From the NCBI RefSeq assembly GCF_016482825.1, contig NZ_JAEMNV010000002.1, forward strand, positions 744,001-808,000: a DNA stretch of 64,000 bases, written 5' to 3'. This stretch comes from Antrihabitans stalagmiti (GTDB taxonomy: Bacteria > Actinomycetota > Actinomycetes > Mycobacteriales > Mycobacteriaceae). A program made the translations under genes and the position numbers. The notes under the pieces were generated by a model. The model did no database searches. It was given only the letters and a program-made list of their open reading frames with translations, and was not told where the DNA came from. This document shows positions 46,862 to 61,348 of the stretch, one piece after another. Every line of letters begins with the position of its first letter. Positions within the stretch are counted from its first letter, which is position 1.

Positions 46862-47419
46862 GTGACGGACATGCGCGGAGTTCTGCTCGATATGGCGGTG
46901 TCGCTCGACGGCTACATCTCCACACCGGAGGGCGGCGACGCCGGTCTGTACAACTGGTACTTCTCGGACGGTCCGAAAGACAAAGAGATCGTCGACGAGA
47001 TTCAGGCGATCACCGGCGCGATCGTCCTCGGCCGCAACGCTTACGCCGTCACCGACGACAACACGGGCGACGTCGCCGACGAGCCCTACCAGGTGCCGCA
47101 TTTCGTGATCACACACAATCCGCCCGCATCACCCGTCGCCGATCCTCGTATGCGATTCGTCACAGACCCCGCGACCGCCCTCACTTCGGCCGCAGCAGAG
47201 GCCGGTGATCGCTACGTAACGGTCGGCGGCGGTGCCGACATCGTCAGACAAATGTTGCGCGCGAGCCTGATCGACGAGGTACAACTGCACGTCGCACCCG
47301 TACTACTCGGAGCGGGTCTATCGCTCTTCGATACCCTCGACACCCACGTCGGTCTGACGCCCGTCCGCACGATTGCGGGCGAAGGTGCGTTGCATGTCTG
47401 GTATCGCGTCGACAAGTAA
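46862..47419 (+). CDS. Dihydrofolate-reductase-like (RibD C-terminal domain) protein
   Basis: This encodes 185 residues from GTG at 46862; ATG at 46871 with GGAGAGG is an alternative. Family landmarks: LLDMAVSLDGYISTPEG, AIVLGRNAYAV, PHFVITHNPP, YVTVGGGADIVRQMLRASLIDEVQLHVAPVLLGAGLSLF. It is an NADPH-type reductase fold with no assigned substrate and stands as a single gene. Confidence 0.9.
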   Translation: MTDMRGVLLDMAVSLDGYISTPEGGDAGLYNWYFSDGPKDKEIVDEIQAITGAIVLGRNAYAVTDDNTGDVADEPYQVPHFVITHNPPASPVADPRMRFVTDPATALTSAAAEAGDRYVTVGGGADIVRQMLRASLIDEVQLHVAPVLLGAGLSLFDTLDTHVGLTPVRTIAGEGALHVWYRVDK

Positions 47420-47436: not shown

Positions 47437-47482
47437 CTCGTGCGTCTTTTCGGACGGCCCCACCACCGAAAAGACTCACGAG
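47437..47482. repeat. Palindromic repeat, copy 1
   Basis: Two 17-base arms (47437-47453 CTCGTGCGTCTTTTCGG; 47466-47482 CCGAAAAGACTCACGAG) pair with one mismatch around a 12-base loop and are followed by CGCGGAGCG. The same outer arm and right flank recur at 60584-60640. It fills the spacer between two plus-strand genes and could act as a terminator or mRNA-end hairpin. Confidence 0.8.
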
Positions 47483-47515
47483 TCGCGGAGCGACCCGACT
47501 GCGGAGGACCCTGCC

Positions 47516-48739
47516 GTGCCCGATTCGACCCCTGCCGATTCCAACACCATCGATACCGACCCCGCTGCGATCGTCGACGAGGCTGTGACGCCGCGACGCT
47601 CTCGTCGTGCGTGGCTGCGCCTGATCCCCGTCTTCGCAATATTGGCGCTGCTGTTCGGTGTGCCGTGGTGGACCCTGGTCTACTCGTCTGTGGAATGGCC
47701 GACGCCGGTCACCGTCGCTGGAACCGTGTTGTTCGCGGGAGCGCTTGTCGCGCTACCGATCTTGATGATGCTCGGGCACGGGCGTCGACATCTGGACCGC
47801 GCCGCCGTTGCCGGTGACGTGCTTCTCGGCGTCGCCTGGGTGCTGTTCGTGTGGAGCGTGATCGGCGATATCGCGCGGCTTGCCCTGGTGCTGGCCGGTG
47901 TCGACAACCCGACGCGGTCACGCATCGTTGCGGTCGCGGTCGTTGTCGTCGTGGCAGTCCTGCTGGCGTGGGGCCACTACGAAGCAATGCGGGTGCCGCG
48001 CATCAAAAACGTCGACGTCACTGTTCCGCGACTCGGCGCCGACCTCGACAACACACGCGTCGTAGTTGTCACCGACACGCACTACGGACCGATCAACCGC
48101 GCCAAGTGGTCCGCCGGCTTGGCCGACGCAGTCAACGGTCTCGACGCCGACATCCTCTGCCACGTCGGAGATATCGCCGACGGCACCGTGTCGCAACGTG
48201 ACAACCAGACGGCACCGCTCGCGTCCATGCGCGCGAAACTTGCTCGCGTCTACGTCACCGGAAATCACGAATACTTCAGCGAAGCGCAGGGCTGGCTCGA
48301 CTACATGCAGGACATCGGCTGGGACAGCCTGCACAATCGCCACCTCGTCGTCACCCGAGGGGATGCCACACTGACGATCGCCGGCGTCGACGACGCCACT
48401 GCCCGCGCCTCCGGCCTCGCTGGGCACGGCGCCAATCTCGCTGCGGCACTTGCAGGTAGCGATCCGCAACACCCCGTTCTGCTGCTCGCCCATCAGCCCA
48501 AGCAGATTTCCCAAGCCGTGAGTGCCGGTGTGGACCTTCAGCTTTCGGGTCATACGCACGGTGGTCAGATCTGGCCGTTCCGCTATCTGGTCCGGCTCGA
48601 TCAGCCAGTGGTTGCGGGTTTGAGCAAGCACGGTGACCGTACGCAGCTCTACACCAGCCGTGGGTCCGGTTTCTGGGGTCCGCCGTTCCGAATCTTCGCG
48701 CCGAGCGAGATCACCGTCATCACACTGAAATCAGCCTGA
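47516..48739 (+). CDS. Membrane-anchored metallophosphoesterase (YkuE-like)
   Basis: This encodes 407 residues from a GTG start. Four hydrophobic segments occupy residues about 25-155, then a calcineurin-like catalytic domain with VVVVTDTHYG (D-x-H), HVGDIAD (G-D-x-x-D), VTGNHEYFSEA (GNHE), LLLAHQPKQ and LSGHTHGGQIWP (GHxH). Two metal ions are expected at the active site. Layout equals the YkuE/YaeI group, which acts on lipid or UDP-lipid phosphates. The domain may face out of the membrane. Confidence 0.93.
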   Translation: MPDSTPADSNTIDTDPAAIVDEAVTPRRSRRAWLRLIPVFAILALLFGVPWWTLVYSSVEWPTPVTVAGTVLFAGALVALPILMMLGHGRRHLDRAAVAGDVLLGVAWVLFVWSVIGDIARLALVLAGVDNPTRSRIVAVAVVVVVAVLLAWGHYEAMRVPRIKNVDVTVPRLGADLDNTRVVVVTDTHYGPINRAKWSAGLADAVNGLDADILCHVGDIADGTVSQRDNQTAPLASMRAKLARVYVTGNHEYFSEAQGWLDYMQDIGWDSLHNRHLVVTRGDATLTIAGVDDATARASGLAGHGANLAAALAGSDPQHPVLLLAHQPKQISQAVSAGVDLQLSGHTHGGQIWPFRYLVRLDQPVVAGLSKHGDRTQLYTSRGSGFWGPPFRIFAPSEITVITLKSA

Positions 48740-48780
48740 GGTCGTCGGAGGACTGACACGGTATTGCGAATCACGTTGTC

Positions 48781-48809
48781 TGGCGGGTTTCTTAGGAAGA
48801 AATACGCCA
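48781..48809 (+). terminator. Rho-independent terminator of the metallophosphoesterase gene
   Basis: Arms TGGCGGGTTTCTT (48781-48793) and AAGAAATACGCCA (48797-48809) form a long stem with one two-base mismatch and a three-base loop AGG, followed on the plus strand by AATAGATTTTC. It sits between convergent genes (stops at 48739 and 48848), 41 bases after the plus-strand stop. Confidence 0.8.
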
Positions 48810-48847
48810 AATAGATTTTCTCGCAGCACTTTCGAATTTCTTGTGTA

Positions 48848-50338
48848 TCAAAATTGCTCTTGGACAATAAGTTCCGCAGCCCGCTCGGCCATCATCACGA
48901 TCGTTGCATGCGGTCCACGGCGCAGCGGCGACGGGATGATCGACGCGTCGACCACCGACAATCCGGTCACTCCGAACACCTGGCAGCGCGCGTCTACGAC
49001 AGCACCGTCGGCGGCAGAGCGGCCCATGCGACAGGTACCACCGAGATGCTGCGAGGTGCCGAGGTGCTCGAGAAATCGAGCGTCGGAATAATCGGGTGAC
49101 ACCGCGTCCACAACTCCCCGTCGAATCAGGTCGTCGAGCAGTCGACGTCCCGTCAGAACAGCGTCGTGCATTGCTGCCCTGTCCGACTCGCCCTCGAGGT
49201 ACCGGTAGTCGACACTGACATCGGTCCGCGGATCGGAGTCCTGCAGCCGAACCGACCCTCTCGACCTCGGTCGCATCAGCACAACACCCAAGCGCTGCAC
49301 TACATCACCGCTTCCGGGCACCAATTCTGCGAAAGGTGCTGTGTACGGCCTGAATTCGACGTCATCGGTGTTCAGCACAACCTGCAGCGCAGGCACGTCG
49401 ACGGCGCCTACGCGAGTCGGCCGATACGGAATCCCCACTTCCGGATGATCGAAGAACCCGGCACCGACACCGGGCAGCGCGGTCACGACAGGCACTCCAA
49501 CCGATCTCAGCTGCTCCGGATCGCCTATACCCGAACGCATCAGCAGTGCGGCAGTCTCGATTGCGCCTGCGCACAACACAATTCGACCAGCCAAGATCCG
49601 CCTCGCGATTCCGTTGGCGACGGCGTCGATCCCGATTGCTCGGTCGGCGTCGAACAGCACCCGTGTCACCGTCGTATTCGAGTTGACTGCGAGATTCGGT
49701 CGGTGCAGCACCGGCAACAGATAGCCGATGGCGGTACTGATTCGGCGACCGTCCCCGATATTCGACGGCACAGGGCCGACACCTGCTGTCGCTGCCGGAG
49801 CGTTCTTGTCCGGTTCGTCGACGAACCCCGCGTCGAGGCACGCCGTGTAGAACTCCGAGCTCAGCGGAGTGAGTCGGTAGCCGCTGTCACGTCGTACCGG
49901 AATCGGACCCGAGGATCCGTGAAACTCGCCGCCGAAATCCTGATCGTTTTCCAGCGCACGGAAGTACGGCAGCACCTGAGAGAACGACCAGAGCTCCTGC
50001 GGCCAACCCTCGAAATCAGCCGACGTCCCACGGATGAAGTAACAACCGTTGACGGCGCCGGAGCCGCCGAGCGCACGCCCACGTACGATCTCCGTCACCT
50101 GACTGGGCCGCAGTTCACCTCGATATCTGCGAACGAAAGGCGCACCCGGACCTACCGGCAGCCTGCCTGGATCGAGAAGCTCGGGGGGGCAGCCGGCCAC
50201 GCTGCTGTAGCCAGGGCCCGACTCGAGTAGCGCGACGGAACGCCCCTCGGCCGCACTCAATTTGGCGGCAAGCACACATCCGGCGCTGCCTGCGCCAACG
50301 ATCGCAACATCGACCTCATGGGGAAGCAGATCAGTCAC
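48848..50338 (-). CDS. mftG: Mycofactocin-system GMC oxidoreductase
   Basis: This encodes 496 residues. GMC family features: [20 protein letters not shown] (FAD), [49 protein letters not shown] and the C-terminal [42 protein letters not shown]. The compact size and direct linkage (eight-base overlap) to mftF identify MftG. In mycobacteria MftG links reduced mycofactocin to respiration during ethanol use. Confidence 0.93.
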
Positions 50339-51755
50339 CCAGAGTCGGCTTCAACGCCTCGATGCTCCGCGCCTGAATCGCACCCTGCCAGAGCCCCGTG
50401 CCGTATGCGATGTCGTCGAGCCGCTTGAACGCGATGTAGCGGACCGGGTCGAGGCCGCCGGTCTCCCTGTGCTTCAACCAATCTGCGACACCCTCCGACA
50501 CAGCGAGTGCCAACGCGACTTGTCGTATTCGCCTCGAGAAGATGATCGCCAGCAGAGTGATCGGCCAGTAGTGCCGGAACATGGCCGACGCAATTTGCCA
50601 CAGCCCCGCAACGAAGCCGCGCGCGACGAAGATGGCCGCGACCCGCGTCGGCTGATCGAGATCGTCGAAGACCTTTCGCAATCGGAACATCGCCACCGAG
50701 AGCGACACGAGGGCGCCGAACAAGCCGAGACGGGTCAGTGTTGCGAGCAACGCGATCGCCGCGACTGTCCACTTGGATATCGACAGGGGCGACACCTTGC
50801 CGGTGTGCCGGGCCGCGAGCGGTGCTGCGCCGGTCCCGTAGAACATCTTGCGACCGAACCACTGACCGAACGACACTCGGTGGTCGTGCGCGACCTGTGC
50901 GGCAGGTTCGTACCGGAGTCGCCATCCAGCTTGCTCGAGCCGCCAGCACAGGTCTACGTCCTCGGCTACATGCATCGTTTCGTCGAAGCCACCCTCGTCC
51001 AGCAGAACGCTGCGCCTGGCGAGCATCGCGGCCGACGGAACATAGGAAACCTGGCTGCGCGCGCGGACGGCGGATTCCTGACGCCCGAGATCGAGCGACG
51101 ATCGACTGTGCTCGTAGCGCGCCAGCTCGTTGGATTCGGGGTCGAGCGCGACAATTCTCGGCGCTACCAACGCAACCTCGGGGTCGCTGAAATGACCGAG
51201 CATCACTTCGAGCCAGCCCTTGCGAGGGACGACATCGGAGTCGAGAAATGCTACGAATTCAGTTGTAGCTGCACGCATTCCGGCGTTTCTCGCTGCCGCG
51301 GGTCCACGCGCGACCTCGTGGCGAATGACCGATACACTGCAGCGGCACTCCCCTGCCTGCGGCACCTGCACCGGCACATCGGAACCGTCGTCGACGACGA
51401 TCACGTGGTGGCCCCGCAGTGCCGCCAACAGTCGGTCGAGTCCGCCGACGTTGTTGCGGAGCGGAACTATGACGGTGACGTCGTCGGTCGACGGAAGCAA
51501 CCTCGGACGCGGATTGGCAACCCCGGAATCGAGCAGCCTGCGAGCGACGACAGCAGTCTGAGGATCCGTCACTTCGAGGAACCCGTCACCGATCATCGCG
51601 GCGGCGGACGGCGCAAGTTTCAACATCCTGGTCGGTGAGCCACCGATGAGTACCCGACCATCACGGTAGGTACGCACTTTTGGATCGATACGCACCCCAA
51701 AACCGTCGGGTAGTCGACCTTGGCGCATCAGGCGATGGTATGCGGATTTGCCCAT
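50331..51755 (-). CDS. mftF: Mycofactocin glycosyltransferase
   Basis: This encodes 474 residues. The N-terminal [33 protein letters not shown] is typical of MftF. A GT2 glycosyltransferase domain follows at about 90-320 ([67 protein letters not shown]), then C-terminal hydrophobic helices at about 325-430. It adds beta-1,4-glucose units to premycofactocin. The start used is [10 protein letters not shown]; a downstream ATG (MRQGRLPDG) is possible. 66 bases separate it from mftE. Confidence 0.94.
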
Positions 51756-51821
51756 GCCGTGTCACTGTGCGGGAAATTAACATTGCTCAGCAGATAACGA
51801 AACGGTCAAGGTGGCCTGTTT

Positions 51822-52523
51822 TCAGGTCAACATGCCGTCCGAATCGGGTTTCCATCGTGCTACGGCGGAATTCGACCGCACCACCATTGCTGCGAGCAAC
51901 TGCTCACCCTCGTGCGCATTTGCTCCGGTTGGGTCACCGAGCACGCCGTTGGGCGAGCAGGCACGAACGCCTTCGGCACGCAGCGTCGGCAGCAGCTGCG
52001 CCATCGGATCCGTATTGCCAGGTTCCGCACGGTGGAGCCGAACTCGGTCCGGCGCGATGTGCAGCAGCAACGACGTCTCGGTCCTGCCGGCGTGGGCGTC
52101 TCCGCCGGGGACCGCGCAGGGCAGCCAAACTACATCACGGGCTTCGAAACGTAACTGCCGCACCGCATTAGCGATCGACTGCGCATTGCCGCCGTGTCCG
52201 TTGACGAAGAGGACACGAGCGGCCCATCGGCAACTCGATCTGCCGTACTCGATGAGCACCGATTCGAGCGCAGCCGCGCCGATCGATACGGTGCCGGGAA
52301 AGTCTTCGTGCTCGCCGCTTGCCCCGTAGGCGATAGCCGGTGCGAGCACGGTTCCGGTCAGTTGTGCGGCGACGGCGACCGCGATGGTCGTGTCCGTATC
52401 CAGTGGCAGGTGTGGTCCGTGCTGTTCGACGGACCCGACAGGAACGGCCAAGGTGTCGGTTCCATTGCGGCGGTCGGACCACACACTGCTGCCGAGATTG
52501 CTCACAGCGACGTCATCGAACAC
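51822..52523 (-). CDS. mftE: Mycofactocin precursor peptide peptidase (creatininase family)
   Basis: This encodes 233 residues. Metal-binding motifs of the creatininase fold are visible: VPVGSVEQHGPHLPLDTDTTIA, GASGEHEDFPGT, VNGHGGNAQS and GDAHAGRTETSLLLHIAP. MftE removes the MftA leader after MftC modification, freeing the Val-Tyr-derived core. It normally follows mftD; here three genes lie between. The ATG at 52523 overlaps the end of the SRPBCC remnant; GTG at 52505 is an alternative start. No standalone promoter is visible, so it probably depends on the CGNR gene promoter. Confidence 0.94.
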   Translation of the reverse strand: MFDDVAVSNLGSSVWSDRRNGTDTLAVPVGSVEQHGPHLPLDTDTTIAVAVAAQLTGTVLAPAIAYGASGEHEDFPGTVSIGAAALESVLIEYGRSSCRWAARVLFVNGHGGNAQSIANAVRQLRFEARDVVWLPCAVPGGDAHAGRTETSLLLHIAPDRVRLHRAEPGNTDPMAQLLPTLRAEGVRACSPNGVLGDPTGANAHEGEQLLAAMVVRSNSAVARWKPDSDGMLT

Positions 52524-52704
52524 AGGTTTGCAGGCTATTTGCTATGGCGAGTTCCAGACGTTCCATGGCGGCCTGCCAATGCTTGCGCTGCTGTTTGCGC
52601 AGCACCGACCACACCTCGTCGACGCCGAATCCGAGCGTCTTGGAGACTCCGATCTCCCAGCCCGCACCCTCGGTCTTGCCGACAGGTACCGATACTTCTG
52701 CCAT
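52513..52704 (-). pseudogene. Internally deleted SRPBCC-domain gene remnant
   Basis: This 63-codon frame has a good ribosome site (AAGGGG) and starts MAEVSVPVGKTEGAGWEIGVSKTL, the exact kind of N terminus seen in SRPBCC/AHSA1-like proteins. After DEVWSVL it jumps straight to RKQQRKHWQAAMERLELAI, which resembles the C-terminal helix of the same family. The central strands (roughly 90 residues of a usual 150-residue domain) are missing. It still reads in frame and overlaps the mftE start, so an in-frame deletion that kept translational coupling is likely. It follows the CGNR gene by three bases. Confidence 0.65.
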
Positions 52705-52707
52705 GGC

Positions 52708-53310
52708 CTACCCCTTCTCGAATCGTCTTCTTGTCCGGGCCTTGTCGCGGTTGCCGCAACGGGACATGGCGCACCAGCGTCGCGCACCCGGACGGGAGGT
52801 GTCGACGAACAGCAGCGCACAATCTGTTGCGGCACAACGCTTGACCCGATCCGCATGGGGTCCGCTCAACAGTGCGATCGCATCTCTCGCGATAGCGGAG
52901 AGCACCTGAGCTCCATCGGCGTTGCGACCTCGGTCCAACTCGAGCACACCCGACCGCAGCACCAGCTGCGGTACCGGGTCCGCTCGTTGCGCAACAGCGT
53001 TCAGGTGCGCTACTGCGTCAGAGGTCGGGAGCTTTCCATCGGCCAGTCTATTGGCCATGTCCCACAACGTCTCTCGTAACCGATGCGCAGCACGCAGGTC
53101 GGCTTCGTCGATCCGCACCGCACTCGGGTCGGACACGACGCCACTCGAGTGCGCCCAGGCAGCCACGTCGGTAGGCGTATGCAACGCCTCCCAACACGAC
53201 CGGTCACCCTCTCCGCCGGTGTAGACGAGGTCGAGCCACAGCGCTCCGGTCACCACCGAGAAGGGCATTCCCTCCGATGAGCGCATCGAAACGCTCGGCC
53301 GGCGATCCAT
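52708..53310 (-). CDS. CGNR zinc-finger regulator
   Basis: This encodes 200 residues if ATG at 53310 is used (MDRRPSVSMR). ATG at 53322 gives four more residues but lies inside a palindrome that looks like an operator. The C terminus holds the treble-clef finger: KRCAATDCALLFVDTSRPGARRWCAMSRCGNRDKARTRRRF (four Cys plus CGNR). The N-terminal ABATE-like domain has LWLDLVYTGG and DLRAAHRLRETLWDMAN. CGNR proteins are thought to act as stress-linked transcription factors. It heads a minus-strand unit leading into mftE-F-G. Confidence 0.9.
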   Translation of the reverse strand: MDRRPSVSMRSSEGMPFSVVTGALWLDLVYTGGEGDRSCWEALHTPTDVAAWAHSSGVVSDPSAVRIDEADLRAAHRLRETLWDMANRLADGKLPTSDAVAHLNAVAQRADPVPQLVLRSGVLELDRGRNADGAQVLSAIARDAIALLSGPHADRVKRCAATDCALLFVDTSRPGARRWCAMSRCGNRDKARTRRRFEKG

Positions 53311-53334
53311 AGTAACCACCATAACTGGTTACTA
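53310..53334. promoter_or_regulatory. Perfect inverted repeat at the CGNR gene start
   Basis: TAGTAACCA (53310-53318) and TGGTTACTA (53326-53334) are perfect 9-base arms with a 7-base spacer. The repeat covers the first ATG of the CGNR gene and lies upstream of the second, so the latter is the more likely start. The site is a strong operator candidate for autoregulation, or for control of the divergent SDR gene as well. Confidence 0.65.
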
Positions 53335-53517
53335 AGTTCACGCAAGCCCACCGAATCGGCGGGCGACCGCGAGCACGATGGCCAGACCGAAAGCAAAAGT
53401 TGCAGTATGGGTTCGGCGATTCATCGGCTGATGCTGGCCAGGATCGTGAGGTTTCGACAGATCGTGAACGACGCTAGCCTCGACCCTGCACGCCCCCTAC
53501 GAGAAACGAGAACACCC

Positions 53518-54276
53518 GTGCCGACGAATGCGACAACCAAGCGTTTTCTCGTGACAGGCTCGACCGGCCAACTTGGTAAGCCGACGCTGGCGGCTCTGAC
53601 CGCCGCGGGCCATGACGCGCGCGGCCTCACCCGACGCGGCGGCGCCGACGCAGTTGCCGCAGACCTGCTAACAGGCCACGGCGTCGACGAGGCACTGGTG
53701 GGTATCGATACGGTCGTGCACCTCGCGACGACCAACGGCAAGAAGGATCTTCTGATTGCAGAGCACCTGGCTGCCGCTGCTGTCCGAGCGAAAGTTACTC
53801 ACCTGGTGGTTGTTTCGATCGTCGGGATCGACGAAATACCCCTGTCGTTCTACAAACAGCGCGTTCGAATCGAAGAGATCATGCACGCATCGGGTATCCC
53901 ACTGACACTGCAGCGTGCGACGCAGTTCCATTCGCTCGTCGATTCGATGTTCTCGTCCCAGCGGTTCCTGCCGGTGGTCGTTGCCCCGGCTATCCGGCTC
54001 CAGCCGATCGCCGTCGAGGAGGTCGGGGCAAAGTTGGCCGAGTTGGCCGTCGGCCCGCCGCTCGGCCGTGTACCCGACATCGGCGGACCCACCCAACGGA
54101 CGATGAAAGATCTGCACGGTGCATGGCGGGCGGCGACCGGAGGCAAGCGACCGGCCGTCGGTCTTCGGTTGCCCGGCAAGCTTTTTGCGGCCTACGACGC
54201 CGGTGTCAATCTCGTGGAAGGACCGACCTACGGGCGCAGCACGTTCGAGGCCTATCTTGCGGACAAATACCGCTGA
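53518..54276 (+). CDS. NmrA/NAD(P)H-binding SDR-family protein
   Basis: This encodes 252 residues from GTG at 53518 (VPTNATTKRFLVTG); upstream codons in the same frame are not family-like. An atypical SDR: FLVTGSTGQLGKPTLAALTAAGHDARGLTRR, VDTVVHLATTN, VTHLVVVSIVGIDEIPLSFYKQR and TLQRATQFHSLVDSMF. Family members act as quinone or redox sensors. It lies between mft genes but on the opposite strand, divergent from the CGNR gene and convergent with the mycofactocin-type SDR. It is likely an insert with that gene. Confidence 0.85.
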   Translation: MPTNATTKRFLVTGSTGQLGKPTLAALTAAGHDARGLTRRGGADAVAADLLTGHGVDEALVGIDTVVHLATTNGKKDLLIAEHLAAAAVRAKVTHLVVVSIVGIDEIPLSFYKQRVRIEEIMHASGIPLTLQRATQFHSLVDSMFSSQRFLPVVVAPAIRLQPIAVEEVGAKLAELAVGPPLGRVPDIGGPTQRTMKDLHGAWRAATGGKRPAVGLRLPGKLFAAYDAGVNLVEGPTYGRSTFEAYLADKYR

Positions 54277-54282
54277 TACGAG

Positions 54283-55095
54283 TCAGACCTTCGTTGCGCC
54301 CATATCGAGCGCGAGCTGGCTACCAGTCACAGTCCTCGATGCGTCGCTCGCGAGCCAGAGCACCGCATCCGACACGTCGTCGGGCGCCGCGAGCGGACTG
54401 TCGGTGAGTATCGAACCGAAGCTCGCGAGGTAGCGCGGATAGTTTCGGAACACCGCAAGCGCGTTGGCGTCGTTGCCCATCGGCGTGTCGACGCCGTAGG
54501 GGTGGATCGAGTTCACACGAATCTTGAATTCGCCCAATTCGATTGCGGCACTTTTGGTCAGGCCGACGACGCCGTGCTTGGCAGCAGAATAGTGCGCCTG
54601 GGCGGGTAGCGCCTTGAGTCCGGCCACCGAGCTGACGGTGATGATCGAGCCACCGTTGCCCGCCGCGATCATCGCCGGCACCGTTGCCTTCAACGTCTTC
54701 CACACGCCGGTGAGGTTGATGTCGAGCAGCGTCGACCATTGCTCGTCCGGCATCTCCCAGAAGCGTGACCAGTTACAGATGCCCGCGTTCGCGATCACGA
54801 TGTCGAGCCTGCCGAACTGCTCGACCCCACGATCGACGACCGCCTGCAACGCCGAGCTGTCCCGGACGTCCGCCTCGGCGACCAGAGCTTTGCGACCCTC
54901 CGCTTCGATCAGATTGCGTGTTTCGGCCAGATCCTCGGCGGTAGCTGGAATGTAGCCATTGTCGCTGGACACGGCTGCGCACACGTCGACCGCGATGATG
55001 TCGGCCCCTTCGCGCGCCAGTCGGATCGCATGATTGCGACCTTGCCCACGAGCAGCACCGGTGATGAAAGCGACTCTGCCTTCGAGCTGACCCAT
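54283..55095 (-). CDS. Mycofactocin-coupled SDR oxidoreductase
   Basis: This encodes 270 residues. Classical SDR with VAFITGAARGQGRNHAIRLAREGADIIAVDVC, then the extra segment VSSDNGYIPATAEDLAETRNLIE that marks the mycofactocin-dependent subfamily. DIVIANAGICNW and the active-site HYSAAKHGVVGLT follow. This group holds non-exchangeable NAD and uses mycofactocin as external electron carrier; the substrate, often a terpenoid or secondary alcohol, is not known here. It follows mftD by 36 bases on the same strand. Confidence 0.93.
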   Translation of the reverse strand: MGQLEGRVAFITGAARGQGRNHAIRLAREGADIIAVDVCAAVSSDNGYIPATAEDLAETRNLIEAEGRKALVAEADVRDSSALQAVVDRGVEQFGRLDIVIANAGICNWSRFWEMPDEQWSTLLDINLTGVWKTLKATVPAMIAAGNGGSIITVSSVAGLKALPAQAHYSAAKHGVVGLTKSAAIELGEFKIRVNSIHPYGVDTPMGNDANALAVFRNYPRYLASFGSILTDSPLAAPDDVSDAVLWLASDASRTVTGSQLALDMGATKV

Positions 55096-55131
55096 ATCGA
55101 AAGATCCTTCGTCGAATGTCGGTTGGGGGGG

Positions 55132-56307
55132 TTACGCGCCGAGCACGCGTTCGAAACCAGGCTTGATGACGAGATCTGCGGGACTCAGGTCCGCGATCGA
55201 GGAGTGGCCGAGACCGAGGAGCGCGGAGTCGATGCCGCTGCGCAGAATGTCGAGCACGTTCTCGACACCCGCTTGGCCGTTGGCCGACAGACCCCACAGG
55301 TATGCCCGGCCGATCATCACAGCGCGCGCACCGAGGGCAACAGCTTTGACGACGTCACTGCCGCGCCGGATGCCACCGTCGAGCACGACCTCGATCTGCT
55401 CGCCCACCGCTTCGGCCACCGCAGGCAATGCCCGGATCGGCGCAGGTGTGCCATCGAGATTGTTCCCACCGTGGTTGGACACCGAGATCGCCGTAACACC
55501 GGCATCGACAGCACGTTTCGCGTCATCGAGGCGCATGATCCCCTTGAGCATAAAAGGACCGCCCCACGCCTCACGCATCCATGCGACGTCCTCCCACGAG
55601 GGCGGCGGGGTCTGCATCCATTCCCCGTAGGCGCCGAAAAACGTCGGCGGAACCTGACCGGGGAGGACGAAGTTCGGTGTCGTGAGATCCGGGATGCGAC
55701 CGGTCTTGGCGAATTCGGTCAACCACCTCGGCCGCGACAACGCCTCCGGCGCGAACCGCAGCATTGCACGAAGATCCATCTTCTCGGGGATCACCGGGGA
55801 ACCCCAATCACGGCCGTGCGAGAACGACCAATCGAGGGTGACGATCAAACCCGTGGCGCCGGCGGCACGGCCACGTTCCATACGAGCGAGTATGTCGTCG
55901 CGACTGCCCGCCCAGTACATCTGGAAGAAGGTCTGCGGGTTTGCCGCGATCACATCTTCGATCGGCTTGCTCGCGAAGGAACTGAGCCCCATCGCCGTTC
56001 CACGCGCGGCGGCCGCACGAGCCACAGCTACCTCACCGTCGGGGTGCACAGCCTGCACGCCGGTCGGCGAGATGATCACCGGCATCGAAATGGGTTGTCC
56101 CATAACCGTGGTCGACATCTCACGCTTGGCCGACAGTCCTGCGACGTGCGGCGCGAAACCGAGTTCGCGGAAGGCAGCACTGTTGTCGTCGAGCGTAAGT
56201 CCCTGCTCCGACCCAGCGATCAGGGCGCCGTAGACCGACTTCGGAAGTCGCTTCTTGGCGCGCCGCTGCGCCTCGGCGACGGTTTCGAACCATGGATTGC
56301 GCGCCAT
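55132..56307 (-). CDS. mftD: Premycofactocin synthase (FMN-dependent, lactate-oxidase fold)
   Basis: This encodes 391 residues from ATG at 56307; the A is shared with the mftC stop (TGATG). FMN-dependent alpha-hydroxyacid-dehydrogenase fold: SAAFRELGFAPHVAGLSAKREMSTTVMGQ, MPVIISPTGVQAVHPDGE, TFFQMYWAG, ISVSNHGGNNLDGTPAPIRALPAVAEAVG and LDGGIRRGSDVVKAVALGARAVMIGRAYLWGL. The NHGGNNLDG string is specific to MftD, which oxidatively deaminates the Val-Tyr product to the alpha-keto-amide cofactor. Confidence 0.96.
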   Translation of the reverse strand: MARNPWFETVAEAQRRAKKRLPKSVYGALIAGSEQGLTLDDNSAAFRELGFAPHVAGLSAKREMSTTVMGQPISMPVIISPTGVQAVHPDGEVAVARAAAARGTAMGLSSFASKPIEDVIAANPQTFFQMYWAGSRDDILARMERGRAAGATGLIVTLDWSFSHGRDWGSPVIPEKMDLRAMLRFAPEALSRPRWLTEFAKTGRIPDLTTPNFVLPGQVPPTFFGAYGEWMQTPPPSWEDVAWMREAWGGPFMLKGIMRLDDAKRAVDAGVTAISVSNHGGNNLDGTPAPIRALPAVAEAVGEQIEVVLDGGIRRGSDVVKAVALGARAVMIGRAYLWGLSANGQAGVENVLDILRSGIDSALLGLGHSSIADLSPADLVIKPGFERVLGA

Positions 56308-57518
56308 CAGACAGACTCTTTCGATCGCATTCCGGAGAGGGGATTTTCGTCGCAGGCACGGGCAGGTGGCGTCACCATCAGGGTCAGGGGCACCGGTGCG
56401 CGCGGGGCGCGGCGGTTGCCGGTGCGGGAGTGGTCCACGTGCGACTTCGGCACGGTACGAGCTGCCGTCAGTGCCGACTCGCCGTAGCCCTCGACACATT
56501 CCGGGTCTGGTCCGTCCATCGGAAGTCCGGTGAAGAACTTGGCGGCCATACACCCGCCGCGGCAGGAGTCGTAGTGATTGCACTTGCTGCACGCACCACC
56601 TGTGGTGGGTTCGCGCAACTCCGCGAAGAGTTTCGAGTGCTGCCATACCTCACGAAAACCACCGTCGGACAGCACGTTTCCTGCAAGGAACTGTTCGTGG
56701 ATCGCGAACGGGCAGGCATAGACGTCACCGACTGGATCGATGAGACACACCACTCTGCCTGCGCCACAGAGGTTCAGCCCCGGCAGCGCATCACCGAACG
56801 CCGACAGGTGGAAGAAAGAATCTCCGGTCAGCACGCCTTCGCCGTTACGGACGAGCCAGTCGTAGAGTTCGCGCTGCTGCGCGTGGGTCGGATGCAGGTC
56901 GTCCCATACGTCGGCCCCTCGGCCCGACGGCCGCAGGCGGGTAATGCGCAGTGTTGCACCGTACTTGGCGGCGAGTGCTTTGAACTCGTCGAGCTGGGAA
57001 ACGTTGTGCCGCGTCACGACCACCGAGATCTTCGCGTCGGAAAAGCCCGCCTCGGCAAGGTTCTCCAAAGCGCGTACGGCCATCGCGAACGAGCCCGGAC
57101 CCCGGACCGCGTCGTTGACCTCGGCGGTGGCGCCGTCGATGGAGATCTGGACGTCCACGTAGTCGCTGGCAGCGAGGCGAGCCGCGACGGACTTGTCGAT
57201 CTTGACGCCGTTGGTCGAGAACTTCACGCCGACACTGTGAGCGGTCGCGTAGTCGACCAGCTCCCAGAAGTCCGCTCGGACCGTAGGTTCGCCGCCGCCG
57301 ATGTTCACGTAGAACACCTGCATCCGCTCGAGTTCGTCGATCACGGCCTTGGCTTGCTCGGTGCTGAGTTCGCGCGGATCACGCCGGCCCGACGAGGACA
57401 GGCAGTGCACACACGAGAGGTTGCAGGCGTAGGTCAGTTCCCACGTCAGACAGATCGGAGCGTCCAGTCCGCGTTCGAACTGGTCGACCAATCGGCCGGG
57501 TGCTGTGGCTGCGGTCAT
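56307..57518 (-). CDS. mftC: Mycofactocin radical SAM maturase
   Basis: This encodes 403 residues. CNLSCVHC (Cys32, Cys36, Cys39) binds the radical SAM 4Fe-4S cluster. GGGEPTVRADF and ISIDG follow. A C-terminal SPASM domain has GAGRVVCLIDPVGDVYACPFAIHEQFLAGN and CSKCNHYDSCRGGCMAAKFFTG for two auxiliary clusters. It decarboxylates the MftA C-terminal Tyr and cyclises it with Val. It overlaps mftB by four bases. Confidence 0.97.
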   Translation of the reverse strand: MTAATAPGRLVDQFERGLDAPICLTWELTYACNLSCVHCLSSSGRRDPRELSTEQAKAVIDELERMQVFYVNIGGGEPTVRADFWELVDYATAHSVGVKFSTNGVKIDKSVAARLAASDYVDVQISIDGATAEVNDAVRGPGSFAMAVRALENLAEAGFSDAKISVVVTRHNVSQLDEFKALAAKYGATLRITRLRPSGRGADVWDDLHPTHAQQRELYDWLVRNGEGVLTGDSFFHLSAFGDALPGLNLCGAGRVVCLIDPVGDVYACPFAIHEQFLAGNVLSDGGFREVWQHSKLFAELREPTTGGACSKCNHYDSCRGGCMAAKFFTGLPMDGPDPECVEGYGESALTAARTVPKSHVDHSRTGNRRAPRAPVPLTLMVTPPARACDENPLSGMRSKESV

Positions 57519-57817
57519 CGGGGGTCAACTCTCTCGTCTGCTGCGGCGGTCGTCGGCACGATCATGTGCGAATCGGCAAGTGTGCCGAGCGCTTTCGCGT
57601 AGGCCGGTGCCGTATCGGCGTCGATGCCGGCAGCGGCGAGCGCAGAGCGCACATCCGGATGCGCCGGCAGGCTGGTCACGATCTCGACGATCGTCTTGTT
57701 CTTGAGGAACGACAGTTTGCGCGTGCCGAAGTGATACAGCAACGCGCCGAACGGTTCCGGCCGCAGCGATACCTGTGGATGCAGCTGCCACCGGGCATCG
57801 AGGTCGAGGCTCGTCAC
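57515..57817 (-). CDS. mftB: Mycofactocin RiPP recognition protein
   Basis: This encodes 100 residues. PqqD-like RiPP recognition element: WQLHPQVSLRPEPFGALLYHFGTRKLSFLKNKTIVEIV, then helices. It binds the MftA leader and presents it to MftC. It follows mftA by 32 bases and overlaps mftC by four. Confidence 0.95.
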   Translation of the reverse strand: MTSLDLDARWQLHPQVSLRPEPFGALLYHFGTRKLSFLKNKTIVEIVTSLPAHPDVRSALAAAGIDADTAPAYAKALGTLADSHMIVPTTAAADERVDPR

Positions 57818-57849
57818 GGGACTACTACCCGACTACTTTTCGCCGGAGC

Positions 57850-57945
57850 TCAGTAGACGCCGCACATGCCGTCGATCGACACTTCTTCGACAAGGGTTTC
57901 CTCTACAACGTCGGACTCGACGGCATCTGCGGGATGATCGGACAT
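57850..57945 (-). CDS. mftA: Mycofactocin precursor peptide
   Basis: This is a 31-codon gene found by translating the minus strand upstream of mftB. GAGGAGG lies eight bases before the ATG at 57945. The peptide begins MSDHPADAVE, has an acidic leader with EETLVEEVS, and ends IDGMCGVY followed by TGA. That C terminus is the conserved MftA core; its last Val-Tyr becomes the cofactor. The gene is small enough to be missed by standard gene calling. Confidence 0.97.
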   Translation of the reverse strand: MSDHPADAVESDVVEETLVEEVSIDGMCGVY

Positions 57946-58041
57946 GACGGCCTCCTCGAAGCGGTTTTGAGATGTCGATCACACTGTAATGGCATCGAGT
58001 GCATAAATGGAAGACCCAAGTTGGAAGACCGAAGGAGCACA
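57946..58041. promoter_or_regulatory. Divergent mftA/mftR promoter region
   Basis: This 96-base spacer holds both start signals. Candidate binding features are the inverted arms TCGAT and ATCGA with a 14-base spacer (about 57975-57998) and a direct repeat TGGAAGACC at about 58008-58016 and 58023-58031, just before mftR. The mftR ribosome site GAAGGAG is clear. MftR in mycobacteria binds this kind of spacer and is released by acyl-CoAs; the exact site here is unproven. Confidence 0.5.
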
Positions 58042-58671
58042 GTGCGACCACACGTCGATCAGTCCACAAAAGTCGGTCGGCGACCATCGACGACCAAGGA
58101 TTCGATCAGCGCGACCGCGATCGAACTGTTCGTCACACACGGCTTCGACGAAACGAGCATCGACGACATCGCCGCAGCAGCAGGAATAGCGCGACGCACG
58201 TTCTTCCGCTACTTCGCATCGAAGAACGCGGTTCCATGGGGCGACTTCGACGTCCACCTCGACGACATGCGTGCCCACCTGTCCGGACTCTCCCCCGACC
58301 TACCCCTCGCCGAACGACTCACGATGGCACTGCTCGAGTTCAACACCTTCCCGCCGGATCAGGCCGAGAAGCATCGCAAGCGGATGGAACTCATCCTCAC
58401 AGCGCCTGCGCTGCAGGCGTATTCGCTCGTAATGTACGAGGGCTGGCGCAACGTCGTCGCCGAGTACGTTGCCGTGAGCACCGACAGCAAACCCGACGAC
58501 CACGGTCCGCGAACGGCGGGATGGATGATGCTCGGCATCGCCCTCGCCGCCTACGAACAGTGGCTGGGCGACGACTCCCTCGCATTGCCCGACCTACTGG
58601 CCCGCGGCTGCAGGCTCCTCGATTCCGGCCTCGCGGGCCTGGTGGCGCAGACACGAACGGACGCCGACTAG
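58042..58671 (+). CDS. mftR: Mycofactocin system TetR regulator
   Basis: This encodes 209 residues from GTG at 58042, chosen because GAAGGAG lies five bases upstream; the frame runs on upstream through mftA antisense, which is not coding. The N terminus RPSTTKDSISATAIELFVTHGFDETSIDDIAAAAGIARRTFFRYFASKNAVPWGDF is a TetR helix-turn-helix of the MftR type. The ligand domain includes FNTFPPDQAEKHRKRMELILTAPALQAYSLVMYEGWR. It diverges from mftA and should control it. Confidence 0.94.
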   Translation: MRPHVDQSTKVGRRPSTTKDSISATAIELFVTHGFDETSIDDIAAAAGIARRTFFRYFASKNAVPWGDFDVHLDDMRAHLSGLSPDLPLAERLTMALLEFNTFPPDQAEKHRKRMELILTAPALQAYSLVMYEGWRNVVAEYVAVSTDSKPDDHGPRTAGWMMLGIALAAYEQWLGDDSLALPDLLARGCRLLDSGLAGLVAQTRTDAD

Positions 58672-58735
58672 CGGGGCACTAGACTTGCCAGGATTGTCCG
58701 ACCAGCCCAGATCGACAAGCGGAGCCGACCCAGCG

Positions 58736-59398
58736 ATGAATCAACCCCGAGCAGCAGCCGAGTCCCCGGAGGGTTACGGCGCCGACCGGTCCGCCCGCCC
58801 GGCGGGCTCGGGAACGGGTTCGCTGTCGGAGGCCGAAATCGTCGAGGCTGCGCTGCGGGTCGTCCGGGTCGATGGCGTCGAGAAGCTCTCGATGCGACGT
58901 CTGTCCCGCGAACTCGGCGTGTCTCCGATGGCCCCGTACTACTACGTTGCCGACAAGAGCGGCCTGCTCGACTTGGTTGCGTCGGCCGCACTTGCCGGCA
59001 TTCACGTTCCCGACATCGGCTCCGGAACCTGGCAGGAGCGGTTGCGCGAACTCATCGACCAGATCGACGAGAAACTGCGCAAGCACCCAGGGCTCGGCGA
59101 TGTACTGCTCGAGCAGATGCTGCGCAAACAACTCGATCTCATCGATGCGGTGATGGCGATCCTGTTCGACGCCGGCTTCTCGGCACGAAATGTGCTTGCC
59201 GCCTACGCAACGATCCATACCTACCTGTTCGGCCGTCGTCGCGTCGGCAAGGCGAACCCGGCGGACATGCCGGACCAGCTGCCGGAGTCACTGGCGAGGG
59301 CGACCAAGCACATGGCAGATCTGAACGGCAAGTACGTCTACCAGTTCGGGATAGAGACTGTGATCAGCGGCCTGGAAGCGCAACTTGTTCGCCAGTAG
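58736..59398 (+). CDS. TetR-family regulator upstream of the kshB-like gene
   Basis: This encodes 220 residues from ATG at 58736 (MNQPRAAAES). The helix-turn-helix is LSEAEIVEAALRVVRVDGVEKLSMRRLSRELGVSPMAPYYYVADKSGLLDLVAS, followed by a TetR C-terminal domain. It lies 64 bases after mftR on the same strand and 83 bases before the reductase gene. Its target is unknown. The box in the following spacer fits KstR rather than this protein. Confidence 0.88.
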   Translation: MNQPRAAAESPEGYGADRSARPAGSGTGSLSEAEIVEAALRVVRVDGVEKLSMRRLSRELGVSPMAPYYYVADKSGLLDLVASAALAGIHVPDIGSGTWQERLRELIDQIDEKLRKHPGLGDVLLEQMLRKQLDLIDAVMAILFDAGFSARNVLAAYATIHTYLFGRRRVGKANPADMPDQLPESLARATKHMADLNGKYVYQFGIETVISGLEAQLVRQ

Positions 59399-59419
59399 CC
59401 GTCCCAGTAGCATCGATAC

Positions 59420-59433
59420 TAGAACACGTTCTA
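59420..59433 (+). promoter_or_regulatory. KstR-type operator
   Basis: TAGAACACGTTCTA has perfect 6-base arms and fits the KstR consensus TnnAACnnGTTnnA used to control sterol catabolism in Mycobacterium and Rhodococcus. It lies 49 bases before the ATG of the kshB-like gene. KstR itself is not in the window. Confidence 0.85.
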
Positions 59434-59481
59434 CTTTTTGATCCTTGCTCGAAGAACCAAGCGGAGAGGAGTTCGTCAGAG

Positions 59482-60540
59482 ATGACCAGCGTTGACGACG
59501 TGCCACACGGCTCTCGATCGGTATTACTGACCGTCTCCGGAGTGATCGACGAGACGCCCGATGCCCGTTCGATCGAATTCGCTGTCCCCGACGAACTCCG
59601 CGATCGCTTCGTCTACAAGCCCGGACAGTTCTTGACCCTACGGATCCCGAGCGATCGCACCGGATCCGTTGCACGCTGCTATTCCCTTGCCAGCTCCCCC
59701 TTCACCGACGACCGACCGAAGGTCACCGTCAAACGCACGCTCGAGGGTTACGGCTCCAACTGGGTCTGCGACAACCTCGCGGTCGGAGACACCGTCGAGG
59801 TCCTGCCACCGTCCGGTCACTTCACGCCGAAGAATCTCGACGACGACCTGCTGCTGCTCGCTGCGGGCAGTGGCATCACACCGGTCATCTCGATCCTGAA
59901 ATCCGCACTGTCACAAGGCACGGGCAAGGTCGTGCTGCTGTATGCAAACCAGGACGAGGCTTCGGTCATCTTCGCAGCAGAGCTACGCGAGCTGGCAGCT
60001 CAGTACCCGGATCGGCTGCTGGTCACCCACTGGCTCGTCAGCCTCAACGGGCTGCCGTCGGTCCCGCAGCTCGCACTTGCCGCGGCGCCCTACCTGTCCT
60101 ACCAGGCGTTTATGTGCGGTCCCGGATTGTTCATGGACGCGGTGCATCGTGCCCTCGACGATCTGGGCGTTCCGCGCAGTCACGTGCGCTCCGAGGTGTT
60201 CAATTCCCTTGCCGGCGACCCATTTACAGATTCGACACCCGTCGAGCTTTCCGACGAGGACGCAGCCGACGCAGCCACGGTCGACGTCGAACTCGACGGC
60301 GAGGTCCACAAGCTGAGCTGGCCGCGCAAGCAGACCCTCGTCGACATCATGTTGGCCAAAGGCATCGACGTTCCGTACTCGTGCCAAGAGGGCGAGTGCG
60401 GTTCGTGCGCCTGCACGGTGCTGGAAGGCAAGGTCGAGATGGACAATGCCGAGATCCTCGATCCGGAAGACATCGAAAACGGCTACGTCCTCGGCTGCCA
60501 GTCGCACCCGGTCTCCGATTACGTCAAAATCGAGTTTTAG
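59482..60540 (+). CDS. kshB: 3-ketosteroid 9-alpha-hydroxylase reductase subunit (KshB-like)
   Basis: This encodes 352 residues with GGAGAGGAG upstream. Order: FAD domain (VYKPGQFLTLRI, RCYSLASSPFTD), NAD domain (LLLLAAGSGITPVISILKSAL, YQAFMCGPGLFMDAVHRALDDLGV) and a C-terminal plant-type 2Fe-2S domain (PYSCQEGECGSCACTVLEG, then LGCQSHP). This length and domain order match KshB, which feeds electrons to the KshA oxygenase in sterol ring opening. The KstR box supports this. It could also serve another Rieske oxygenase, since no kshA is nearby. Confidence 0.9.
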   Translation: MTSVDDVPHGSRSVLLTVSGVIDETPDARSIEFAVPDELRDRFVYKPGQFLTLRIPSDRTGSVARCYSLASSPFTDDRPKVTVKRTLEGYGSNWVCDNLAVGDTVEVLPPSGHFTPKNLDDDLLLLAAGSGITPVISILKSALSQGTGKVVLLYANQDEASVIFAAELRELAAQYPDRLLVTHWLVSLNGLPSVPQLALAAAPYLSYQAFMCGPGLFMDAVHRALDDLGVPRSHVRSEVFNSLAGDPFTDSTPVELSDEDAADAATVDVELDGEVHKLSWPRKQTLVDIMLAKGIDVPYSCQEGECGSCACTVLEGKVEMDNAEILDPEDIENGYVLGCQSHPVSDYVKIEF

Positions 60541-60583
60541 GCGGCTACGACATACCCCCGTCGCTTCGCTCGCCCCACCGCGG

Positions 60584-60629
60584 CTCGTGAGTCCTTCCGG
60601 AGGTCCCACCCTCCTAAAGGACTCACGAG
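60584..60629. repeat. Palindromic repeat, copy 2 (between convergent genes)
   Basis: Arms CTCGTGAGTCCTTCCGGAG (60584-60602) and CTCCTAAAGGACTCACGAG (60611-60629) pair with two mismatches around an 8-base loop and are followed by the same CGCGGAGCG flank as copy 1. It separates the convergent kshB-like and AlkD-like genes and its right arm runs into the last codons of the AlkD-like gene. It probably ends transcription in both directions. Confidence 0.8.
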
Positions 60630-61348
60630 GCGCGGAGCGCCCTACGGGTTTCCGGTTCCAAATGTTCTGTGGCATAACTCAATGCCGTCCTGCCCATCGC
60701 TGACGCATGCTGCTCGAGAAACGACATCAACAGCGCTCCGTCGACCTTCTTACCGACCTCGCGCAGCATCCAGCCGAGCGCCTTCTGGATCAGGTCCGCG
60801 CGATCTGGCAGTAGTAGTTCGGCAAGTTCGAACGTCGTCGACGGGTCACCCCTCTTGATGAACTCGAACGTCGTCAGGAGTGCAATCCTGCGCTCCCACA
60901 GATCAGCGCTGCGAGCGAACGAGAACAACAGATCGCGGCGACGATCGAAAAGCCATGGGCCCAATATGTTCTCAGCCGAGGAGTCGACCAGATCCCAGTT
61001 GTTGACGCGTCGGCGGGCGATTGCGCCGAGATAGCGATCCACGACGCGCTCCTGCTTCTCGACGTCGAAGGTCCGCGGTTTCGATGCGGCCGCGAACTGC
61101 GCGTTCAAGATCAGCAGACCAGCTAGTCGATGCTCGTGAACGTCGCTGTCGAGCAGAACGTCGACTTCGTCGAGGGGCAGATCCGCGAACGACTTGACCA
61201 CTTTCCGAGTTGCGGGAACACGGACTCCGACGAAGACATCACCCTCGCCGTATTCGCCAGGGCCAGTCTTGAAGAACCGCTGCAAATGGACCGCATCGAG
61301 CGGATCCGACACTGCGGCCAACGCCGCGACGACGTCGGCAGCGATCAT
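60623..61348 (-). CDS. DNA alkylation repair protein (AlkD-like)
   Basis: This encodes 241 residues made of HEAT-like helical repeats. Family strings: FFKTGPGEYGEGDVFVGVRVPATRKVVKSF, EHRLAGLLILNAQF, VNNWDLVDSSAENILGPWL and WERRIALLTTFEFIKRGD, KALGWMLREVGKK. AlkD removes alkylated bases without base flipping. The last codons come from the palindromic repeat. The start overlaps the racemase-family gene stop by four bases. Confidence 0.92.
   Translation of the reverse strand: MIAADVVAALAAVSDPLDAVHLQRFFKTGPGEYGEGDVFVGVRVPATRKVVKSFADLPLDEVDVLLDSDVHEHRLAGLLILNAQFAAASKPRTFDVEKQERVVDRYLGAIARRRVNNWDLVDSSAENILGPWLFDRRRDLLFSFARSADLWERRIALLTTFEFIKRGDPSTTFELAELLLPDRADLIQKALGWMLREVGKKVDGALLMSFLEQHASAMGRTALSYATEHLEPETRRALRAS

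What the first reader, a model, noticed from the sequence alone, without database searches (positions are those of the whole stretch)
47437..60640. Palindromic repeat family with two copies, one forming a gene end
Copies at 47437-47482 and 60584-60629 share the outer arm CTCGTGAGTC/GACTCACGAG and the flank CGCGGAGCG while the inner arm and loop differ but still pair. Compensated change of the inner stem shows selection on the hairpin. Copy 2 overlaps the last codons of a repair gene. This looks like a REP-like mobile or terminator element of this lineage.
Basis: seen in the sequence. Interest (0 to 1): 0.6.

Follow-up and report, generated by a model that had tools for sequence, protein, structure and literature searches.

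The report
Copied 46-bp hairpin at gene ends
The two palindromes belong to a repeat family with more than a hundred near-identical copies that sits mostly right after genes, often supplying the stop signal, and related bacteria carry the same-sized hairpin with a different middle, so it behaves like a copied element rather than a one-off terminator.

Summary
The window's genome holds 105 exact-arm copies of CTCGTGAGTC-N26-GACTCACGAG (control 0), about 160 by extrapolation. The unit is 46 bp (27 of 28 in 848 kb). In this species it is often capped by a small GNA-loop hairpin ending in TAG/CTA. It sits at gene 3' ends, enriched between convergent genes, and often forms the stop codon. Antrihabitans stalactiti (93 copies), a Pseudonocardiaceae MAG and 13 genomes of one other genus carry palindromes with the same outer arms but other middles, largely uniform within a genome. 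Most sites are not shared: of 371 orthologous gene ends, 3 have it in both species and 31 in one. Empty sites exist, and unrelated palindromes occupy the same gene ends in other species. This supports a REP-class, non-autonomous, copied palindrome. It is not a GTAG/CGTC REP: no Y1 transposase in 12 genomes, wrong tag, long stem. It lacks the U-tract of intrinsic terminators. Its mover is unknown; a role in 3'-end formation is plausible but untested.

The parts
47437..47482 (.). copy 1, 46-bp core palindrome (left arm CTCGTGCGTC, one mismatch in the outer stem)
47483..47494 (+). copy 1 right flank TCGCGGAGCGAC, resembling a worn GNA-loop mini-hairpin cap
   Evidence: cap consensus ccGCGNAGCCgCct
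46862..47419 (+). RibD C-terminal domain gene whose stop lies 17 bp before copy 1
47516..48739 (+). metallophosphoesterase gene downstream of copy 1 (same direction)
60584..60629 (.). copy 2, 46-bp core palindrome, exact outer arms
60630..60644 (+). copy 2 right cap GCGCGGAGCGCCCTA (GGCGC-GGA-GCGCC hairpin counting the last G of the core; CTA edge). G003 has a similar GCGC-GTA-GCGC stretch at this place without the core
60538..60583 (+). copy 2 left part: TAG stop of the reductase gene, start of a left cap (GCGGCTACG), then a non-standard spacer
   Evidence: compact left caps of other copies
59482..60540 (+). reductase gene (FAD_binding_6, NAD_binding_1, Fer2) ending in TAG at the element edge
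60623..61348 (-). DNA alkylation repair gene (PF08713) whose TGA stop and last serine lie in the right arm of copy 2, and RALRA in its cap

Best explanation
The palindromes are copies of a dispersed, non-autonomous, short palindromic repeat of the REP class. Shown: a fixed 46-bp unit; nearly invariant outer 9-10 bp arms; a middle that is largely uniform within a genome and different between genomes; over 100 copies at unrelated gene ends; frequent presence/absence differences at orthologous gene ends. Inferred: the repeat is copied as DNA from site to site by a machinery that recognises the outer arms and the hairpin. Copies survive right behind stop codons, where insertion does no damage and where the palindrome can even replace the stop codon. 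Old copies are rewritten or lost, so each species ends up with its own middle sequence. Once in place the hairpin is transcribed and may act at the RNA level (blocking 3' exonucleases, helping termination from either side); that benefit is probably incidental rather than the reason the family spreads. The mobilising enzyme is unknown and is not a Y1 (RAYT/IS200) transposase known to Pfam.
For: Copy number 105 exact with control 0. 93 copies in A. stalactiti, those listed mostly with middle GGAGTCCNNGGACTCC, against GGAGG-N6-CCTCC-like in the window species. Length 46 in 27 of 28 (window species) and 21 of 23 (A. stalactiti), with 38-54 allowed, and in 27 of 27 in three genomes of another family with 38-52 allowed. 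Gene-end location: 24 of 27 (window species), 55 of 60 (A. stalactiti), 18 of 22 (MAG), 13 of 17 (G102+G108) and 10 of 10 (G279) elements with a stop codon within -30..+60 bp. Convergent pairs: 10 of 27 placed elements against 104 of 628 other gaps, p 0.01; A. stalactiti 23 of 43 against 114 of 655 gaps of the window species, p 3e-7. Turnover: 371 orthologous gene ends, 3 both, 18 window species only, 13 A. stalactiti only. Where only one species has the element, the other has a strong hairpin no more often than elsewhere (3 of 31 against 64 of 674). Clean small-gap contrasts at 3 of 13 adjacent ortholog pairs: TAG-[70 bp]-CTA against TAG-CGAG-CTA (C12:459380), TGA-54 bp-TCA against TGA-12 bp-TCA (A. 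stalactiti 556275), 75 bp against overlapping stops at CTAG (C12:15314).
Against: No autonomous partner, no target-site duplication and no transposase was found, so movement is inferred from copies and empty sites, not seen. Polarity of the empty sites (gain or loss) is not settled; G003's site could be a remnant of a lost copy. In most of the 13 adjacent pairs the partner gap is not a simple empty site: it differs widely, is as long or longer, or holds another hairpin. A rank test leans towards hairpins opposite window-species-only ends (p 0.055; the reverse 0.40). Some positions are shared more than expected: first or second palindrome family at both orthologous ends 6 of 371 against about 1.8 expected, p 0.005. 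In another genus several unrelated palindromes occupy the same gene ends, as expected if a hairpin is wanted there. Strains of one species were not available.
Confidence: 0.62

Rival explanations
1. Bidirectional transcription terminators or 3'-end processing hairpins kept by selection; sequence uniformity comes from ectopic gene conversion or repeated replacement, and function rather than mobility explains location.
For: Strong hairpins, directly after stop codons, enriched between convergent genes; unrelated palindromes substitute for one another at the same gene end in g62 genomes and in Antrihabitans (GTGCGYGAGT family); some positional conservation. Hairpins in general are conserved at 3' ends (13 of 371 both, OR 6.7, p 1e-5).
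Against: No U-tract: 2 of 302 flanks have 5 or more T in 8 nt; in Antrihabitans the T run lies in the 5' arm and the A run in the 3' arm. Only 32 of 656 called gene ends in C12 carry one; 31 of 34 orthologous ends with it differ, and the partner has no hairpin in excess (3 of 31 against 64 of 674). The 5'-end control is also associated (3 both, OR 18.9, p 0.002), so hairpin conservation is not special to 3' ends. A strict 46 bp is not required of a terminator.
Confidence: 0.22
2. Recognition site of a DNA-binding protein (nucleoid or roadblock protein) with two 9-10 bp half-sites at fixed spacing.
For: Nearly invariant outer arms and 46-bp length with free middle.
Against: A protein site would not need complementary middles, yet these pair above shuffles in A. 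stalactiti and G102+G108 (0 of 500 each) and G279 (4 of 500); no excess in the window species (69 of 500) or the MAG (306 of 500). It does not explain turnover or confinement to stop codons.
Confidence: 0.08
3. Canonical RAYT-driven REP or REPIN, with the TAG-edged small hairpins as the REP units and the 46-bp palindrome as spacer.
For: In the window species the composite often ends in TAG/CTA with a small hairpin inside; TAG is the stop at 23 of 32 element-bearing ends against 28% of 624 others (p 8e-7), as reported for GTAG REPs (PMC3733652, section 15 read).
Against: No Y1 transposase in 4 genus genomes nor in 8 other carriers, with positive controls; small hairpins alone are not in excess (35 without a core against 33 in the reversed sequence); the base before TAG varies; other species lack the caps.
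Confidence: 0.05

Closest known systems
GTAG- and CGTC-tagged REPs (Di Nocera et al. 2013, PMC3733652; abstract, section 15 and part 1 of section 17 read)
   Same: High-copy short extragenic palindromes, mostly between convergent or co-directional genes, often within 20 bp of 3' ends, sometimes giving the TAG stop codon; CGTC REPs also lack a known transposase; patchy by species
   Different: 46-bp unit with 18-21 pairs in the copies folded (REP stems 5-13 bp), no GTAG or CGTC tag, no RAYT found, in Mycobacteriales (a find in the paper gave 0 for Actinobacteria and four of its genera)
REPINs (PMC3116915, search listing only)
   Same: Inverted pair of small hairpins around a spacer in the window species; whole unit symmetric
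   Different: Spacer is itself the conserved palindrome; caps are absent in other species; no RAYT found
MITEs
   Same: Non-autonomous, inverted-repeat, dispersed copies
   Different: No target duplication or parent transposon found in the DNA read
Intrinsic terminators and other 3'-end inverted repeats of bacteria (survey PMC13155455, passages seen)
   Same: Hairpin right after the stop codon, usable from both sides
   Different: No U-tract; repeated near-identical sequence at unrelated genes

Membership tests
REP (broad sense: repetitive extragenic palindromes) | High-copy short palindrome, mostly intergenic | tested here: met
   105 exact copies, control 0; 1 of 28 falls inside a called gene, where two gene calls overlap
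REP (broad sense: repetitive extragenic palindromes) | Located behind genes, between convergent or co-directional ORFs | tested here: met
   25 of 28 convergent or co-directional, 2 divergent, 1 inside a called gene
GTAG REP superfamily | Unpaired GTAG tag at one end | tested here: not met
   TAG edge common in the window species only, preceding base variable; not part of the half consensus elsewhere
GTAG REP superfamily | RAYT (Y1) transposase in carriers | tested here: not met
   0 of 4 and 0 of 8; control rings in 5 of 14 named genomes
GTAG REP superfamily | Stem 5-13 bp | tested here: not met
   18-21 pairs in the three copies folded
CGTC REP superfamily | CGTC tag, stem 8-9 bp | tested here: not met
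   edges; stems
MITE | Target-site duplication | tested here: inconclusive
   left/right flank 5-mers at offsets 0-21: no signal in three of five groups; offset 7 in the window species (0.55) lies in the caps; 0.42 and 0.44 in G279 with only 10 copies
MITE | Parent transposon with the same ends | tested here: inconclusive
   solo arms 2 in 848 kb and 9 in about 781 kb, none pairing around a gene; the rest of the genomes not read
Intrinsic terminator | Stable hairpin behind the stop codon | tested here: met
Intrinsic terminator | U-tract after the hairpin | tested here: not met
   2 of 302 flanks with 5 or more T in 8 nt
DNA uptake sequence in inverted pairs | The same short word also abundant singly | tested here: not met
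   2 solo arms against 28 palindromes in 848 kb
Rfam family | Match at gathering score | tested here: not met
   0 in the window

The most novel reading that the evidence does not exclude
A class of mobile palindrome cassettes in Mycobacteriales, moved by an unknown machinery that reads only about ten outer base pairs and a fixed 46-bp length, while the inner 26-28 bp are rewritten in each lineage. Several such cassette families (46, 40-42 and about 48 bp) share and replace one another at the same gene 3' ends, working as interchangeable two-way gene-end modules and stop-codon donors.
Probability: 0.3. Interest if true: 0.75.

Novelty: new variant of a known kind. Interest (0 to 1): 0.5.

Why it matters
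REP-type repeats with their transposases are described mostly from Proteobacteria (PMC3733652 abstract). A comparably abundant family in Mycobacteriales without a detectable Y1 enzyme, with fixed length and swappable middle, asks what else can copy a palindrome around a genome. The same gene ends carrying unrelated palindromes in species about 90% identical make the question 'mobile parasite or replaceable terminator part' directly testable with Term-seq and strain comparison in culturable species.

Tried and rejected
REP-RAYT: rejected, no Y1_Tnp. Phage or plasmid vehicle: no match of copy 2 with flanks at E 1e-3 in plasmids or phages; 4 stretches in viral contigs, not followed. DNA uptake sequence: rejected, arms not found singly. 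Known RNA family: none in the window. Target-site duplication: none convincing. Small GNA hairpins as independent repeats: rejected, those without a core are at control level. Need for a hairpin at these ends: hairpins in general are associated between orthologous 3' ends (13 of 371 both, OR 6.7, p 1e-5) but also between 5' ends (3 both, OR 18.9, p 0.002); for this family there is no excess. First family in the window species against second family in A. stalactiti alone was not significant (2 of 18 against 11 of 337, p 0.14); by eye three such ends (A15, A69, A206) look so, the pattern counted two. The caps resemble very stable GNA-loop DNA mini-hairpins (recalled, no call). Rows dropped: variant locus L084 was left out; L097 and L114 were also left out. 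Literature: nine searches; no listed title or abstract describes this family. 133 papers hold one of the two 9-mers, 25 were listed and looked unrelated by title, none of them was opened. Subscription papers are not held, so absence from print is not shown.
Full report
Check of the observation. Copy 1 has one arm mismatch (CTCGTGCGTC). Both fold well beyond shuffles. The window lies in G000:C12:744001-808000 of a 6.39-Mb genome. There the arm pair CTCGTGAGTC-N8..38-GACTCACGAG occurs 105 times on each strand (it is its own reverse complement), against 0 for the reversed pattern. In 848 kb of contig C12 a profile finds 28 copies, 18 of them with exact arms; scaled to the genome this is about 160 (inference).

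Anatomy. The core is 46 bp: 27 of 28 in C12 and 21 of 23 in about 781 kb of A. stalactiti with 38-54 bp allowed, reversed controls 1 and 0. In the window species the core is flanked outward by a second, small hairpin with a GNA loop (half consensus GACTCACGAG|ccGCGNAGCCgCct). Of 33 such strict caps found next to a core, 15 are followed by CCTA or CTA, 2 by CCTCA, 16 by neither. Small hairpins without a core are no more frequent than in reversed sequence (35 against 33), so they belong to this element in this species. A. stalactiti has short G-rich flanks instead; the other groups show at most a few weakly preferred bases.

Position. I called genes with a small codon-usage caller of my own, because no gene table exists. 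Of 28 elements in C12, 10 lie between convergent genes, 15 between co-directional genes, 2 between divergent genes and 1 inside a called gene where two calls overlap. A. stalactiti: 23 convergent, 19 co-directional, 1 divergent, 2 at locus ends (45 elements; one 58-bp variant locus, L084, left out). MAG Dino_bin21: 9, 9, 2, 1 (21 elements). G102+G279+G108: 11 convergent, 15 co-directional, 1 divergent (27). Convergent enrichment: p 0.01 for the window species; p 3e-7 for A. stalactiti, using the window species' gaps as background. Distances to the stop are tight: in the window species 20 of 24 lie 9-16 bp from the core, i.e. the cap starts at the stop codon, and 3 elements use the arm's own TGA; TAG is the stop at 23 of 32 loaded ends against 28% of 624 others (p 8e-7). 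In A. stalactiti 16 of 60 elements and in the MAG 8 of 22 give their arm TGA as stop, with no TAG excess.

Copy 2 in detail. G003, a genus mate with no exact copy and none in a fuzzy scan of 155 kb, has the same two genes abutting: the reductase ends GAG TAC TAG and the alkylation repair gene ends ETRKALRAR with its TAG on the other strand sharing the TA of one CTAG. In the window species 94 bp lie between the alignable parts (positions), and the repair protein ends ETRRALRAS with a TGA inside the palindrome arm. Insertion at the overlapping stops explains this; loss from G003 is not excluded, since G003 keeps a GCGC-GTA-GCGC stretch there.

Relatives. Exact arms: G000 105, G001 93, G002 and G003 0; 0 in 57 further family and order genomes. 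G001 is A. stalactiti: contigs of 222,849 and 646,548 bases match. With 9-bp arms, 21 of 397 order genomes and 7 of 86 genera have a match, 13 of the 21 in genus g62, several with only one to three copies. With the looser CGYGAGT-N20..32-ACTCRCG, 159 of 298 genomes have a match, mostly at the level of the reversed control; 16 have 20 or more (G000 132; 11 of 12 g62 genomes 20-200; g94 138; one g86 46; g98 41; one g6 21), while no genome's reversed control exceeds 15; g29 genomes (probably mycobacteria, my guess) have 0-4 (counts read by eye). I take g62 to be Amycolatopsis from size and memory; no call names it. Middles: window species YTTTCGGAGG..CCTCCGAAAR, A. stalactiti TTTTNGGAGTCCNNGGACTCCNAAAA, MAG near TTTTTGGGTGCTATAGCACCCAAAAA, several g62 genomes near GGTAAGGACGGTTAGAACCGTCCTTACC.

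Turnover. In 371 syntenic ortholog pairs (window species C12 and A. stalactiti; gene ends, not elements, so one element between convergent genes can count twice) 3 have the element in both, 18 only in the window species, 13 only in A. stalactiti. The 3 shared ends carry each species' own middle. Of 13 adjacent ortholog pairs printed, three give clean small-gap contrasts: C12:459380, gap 70 against 4 bp, TAG-CGAG-CTA; A. stalactiti 556275, gap 54 against 12 bp; C12:15314, gap 75 bp against overlapping stops at CTAG. In most others the partner gap is diverged, as long or longer, or holds another hairpin. Where one species has the element and the other not, the other has a strong hairpin in 3 of 31, as elsewhere (64 of 674), though a rank test leans the other way for window-species-only ends (p 0.055). 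First or second family at both ends is 6 against about 1.8 expected (p 0.005).

Same gene end, different palindromes. At one convergent junction in g62 genomes (60 searched, 30 loci kept), among the ten full-length matches (the query genome included, 87-100% identical) three carry the 46-mer (G108, G464, G102), six carry an unrelated palindrome GTCCTCTGNATGCGGTA..TACCGCATNCAGAGGAC or a close form of it (G423, G432, G434, G445, G306, G457) and one none (G460). Further loci show a broken 46-mer (G433) and, at lower identity, other 46-mers (G428; G435 with changed arms). At a second junction (60 searched, 30 loci kept) G108 has the 46-mer, G433 a near copy, and seven others (L253, L255, L256, L258, L259, L265, L266) a GTGAAGGCC..GGCCTTCAC-type palindrome, with two variants of it (L260, L267); several have no palindrome there. 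A. stalactiti has a second 40-42 bp family GTGCGYGAGT..ACTCRCGCAC, 13 in about 781 kb with reversed control 0, each near a stop codon; at some orthologous ends one species has the first and the other the second family. Of 265 reciprocal best pairs among the sampled loci, 5 have an element behind both genes, among them one convergent pair shared by A. stalactiti (L062) and G279, which belongs to another family.

Mechanism. Near-identical sequence at unrelated gene ends means copying. No Y1 transposase in 12 genomes; no parent element or duplication in the DNA read. The U-tract of intrinsic terminators is absent (2 of 302 flanks). Pairing of variable inner positions exceeds shuffled arms in A. 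stalactiti (0 of 500), G102+G108 (0 of 500) and G279 (4 of 500), but not in the window species (69 of 500) or the MAG (306 of 500). Template switching can produce such matched changes without selection (PMC8794818, outline with abstract seen), so they do not prove a function.

Verdict. Known kind in the broad sense; new variant by length, tag, lack of a detectable Y1 enzyme, swappable middle and host group.

Noticed in passing
window 48848-57817 (and regulator 58042-58671): Gene set resembling a mycofactocin cluster: GMC oxidoreductase, glycosyltransferase, creatininase, FMN dehydrogenase, radical SAM/SPASM (Pfam); the name mycofactocin is recalled, not from a call.
   Followed up: partly
   Followed up: partly
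L203-L205, L207, L208, L210 (g62 genomes): Third palindrome family, GTCCTCTGNATGCGGTA..TACCGCATNCAGAGGAC or close, at a gene end where other species have the 46-mer.
   Followed up: partly
L253, L255, L256, L258, L259, L265, L266 (variants L260, L267): Palindrome GTGAAGGCC..GGCCTTCAC behind an AMP-binding enzyme gene in g62 genomes.
   Followed up: no
L084:6925-6982 (A. stalactiti): 58-bp palindrome with the same arms but a quite different, longer middle.
   Followed up: no
L053 and L069: Verrucomicrobia and Bacteroidales MAG stretches where CTCGTGAGTC-like or similar words recur close together; look like unrelated local repeats.
   Followed up: no
L065 and L106 (Candidatus Riflebacteria): Two similar palindromes with the same outer 10-mers and near-identical flanks on both sides; possibly a separate repeat.
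   Followed up: no
L211, L212, L215 (g62 genomes): Arrays of short repeated units such as CACGCGAGTTACGGCT or ACGGCGATCTCGCGTG behind the same reductase gene.
   Followed up: no
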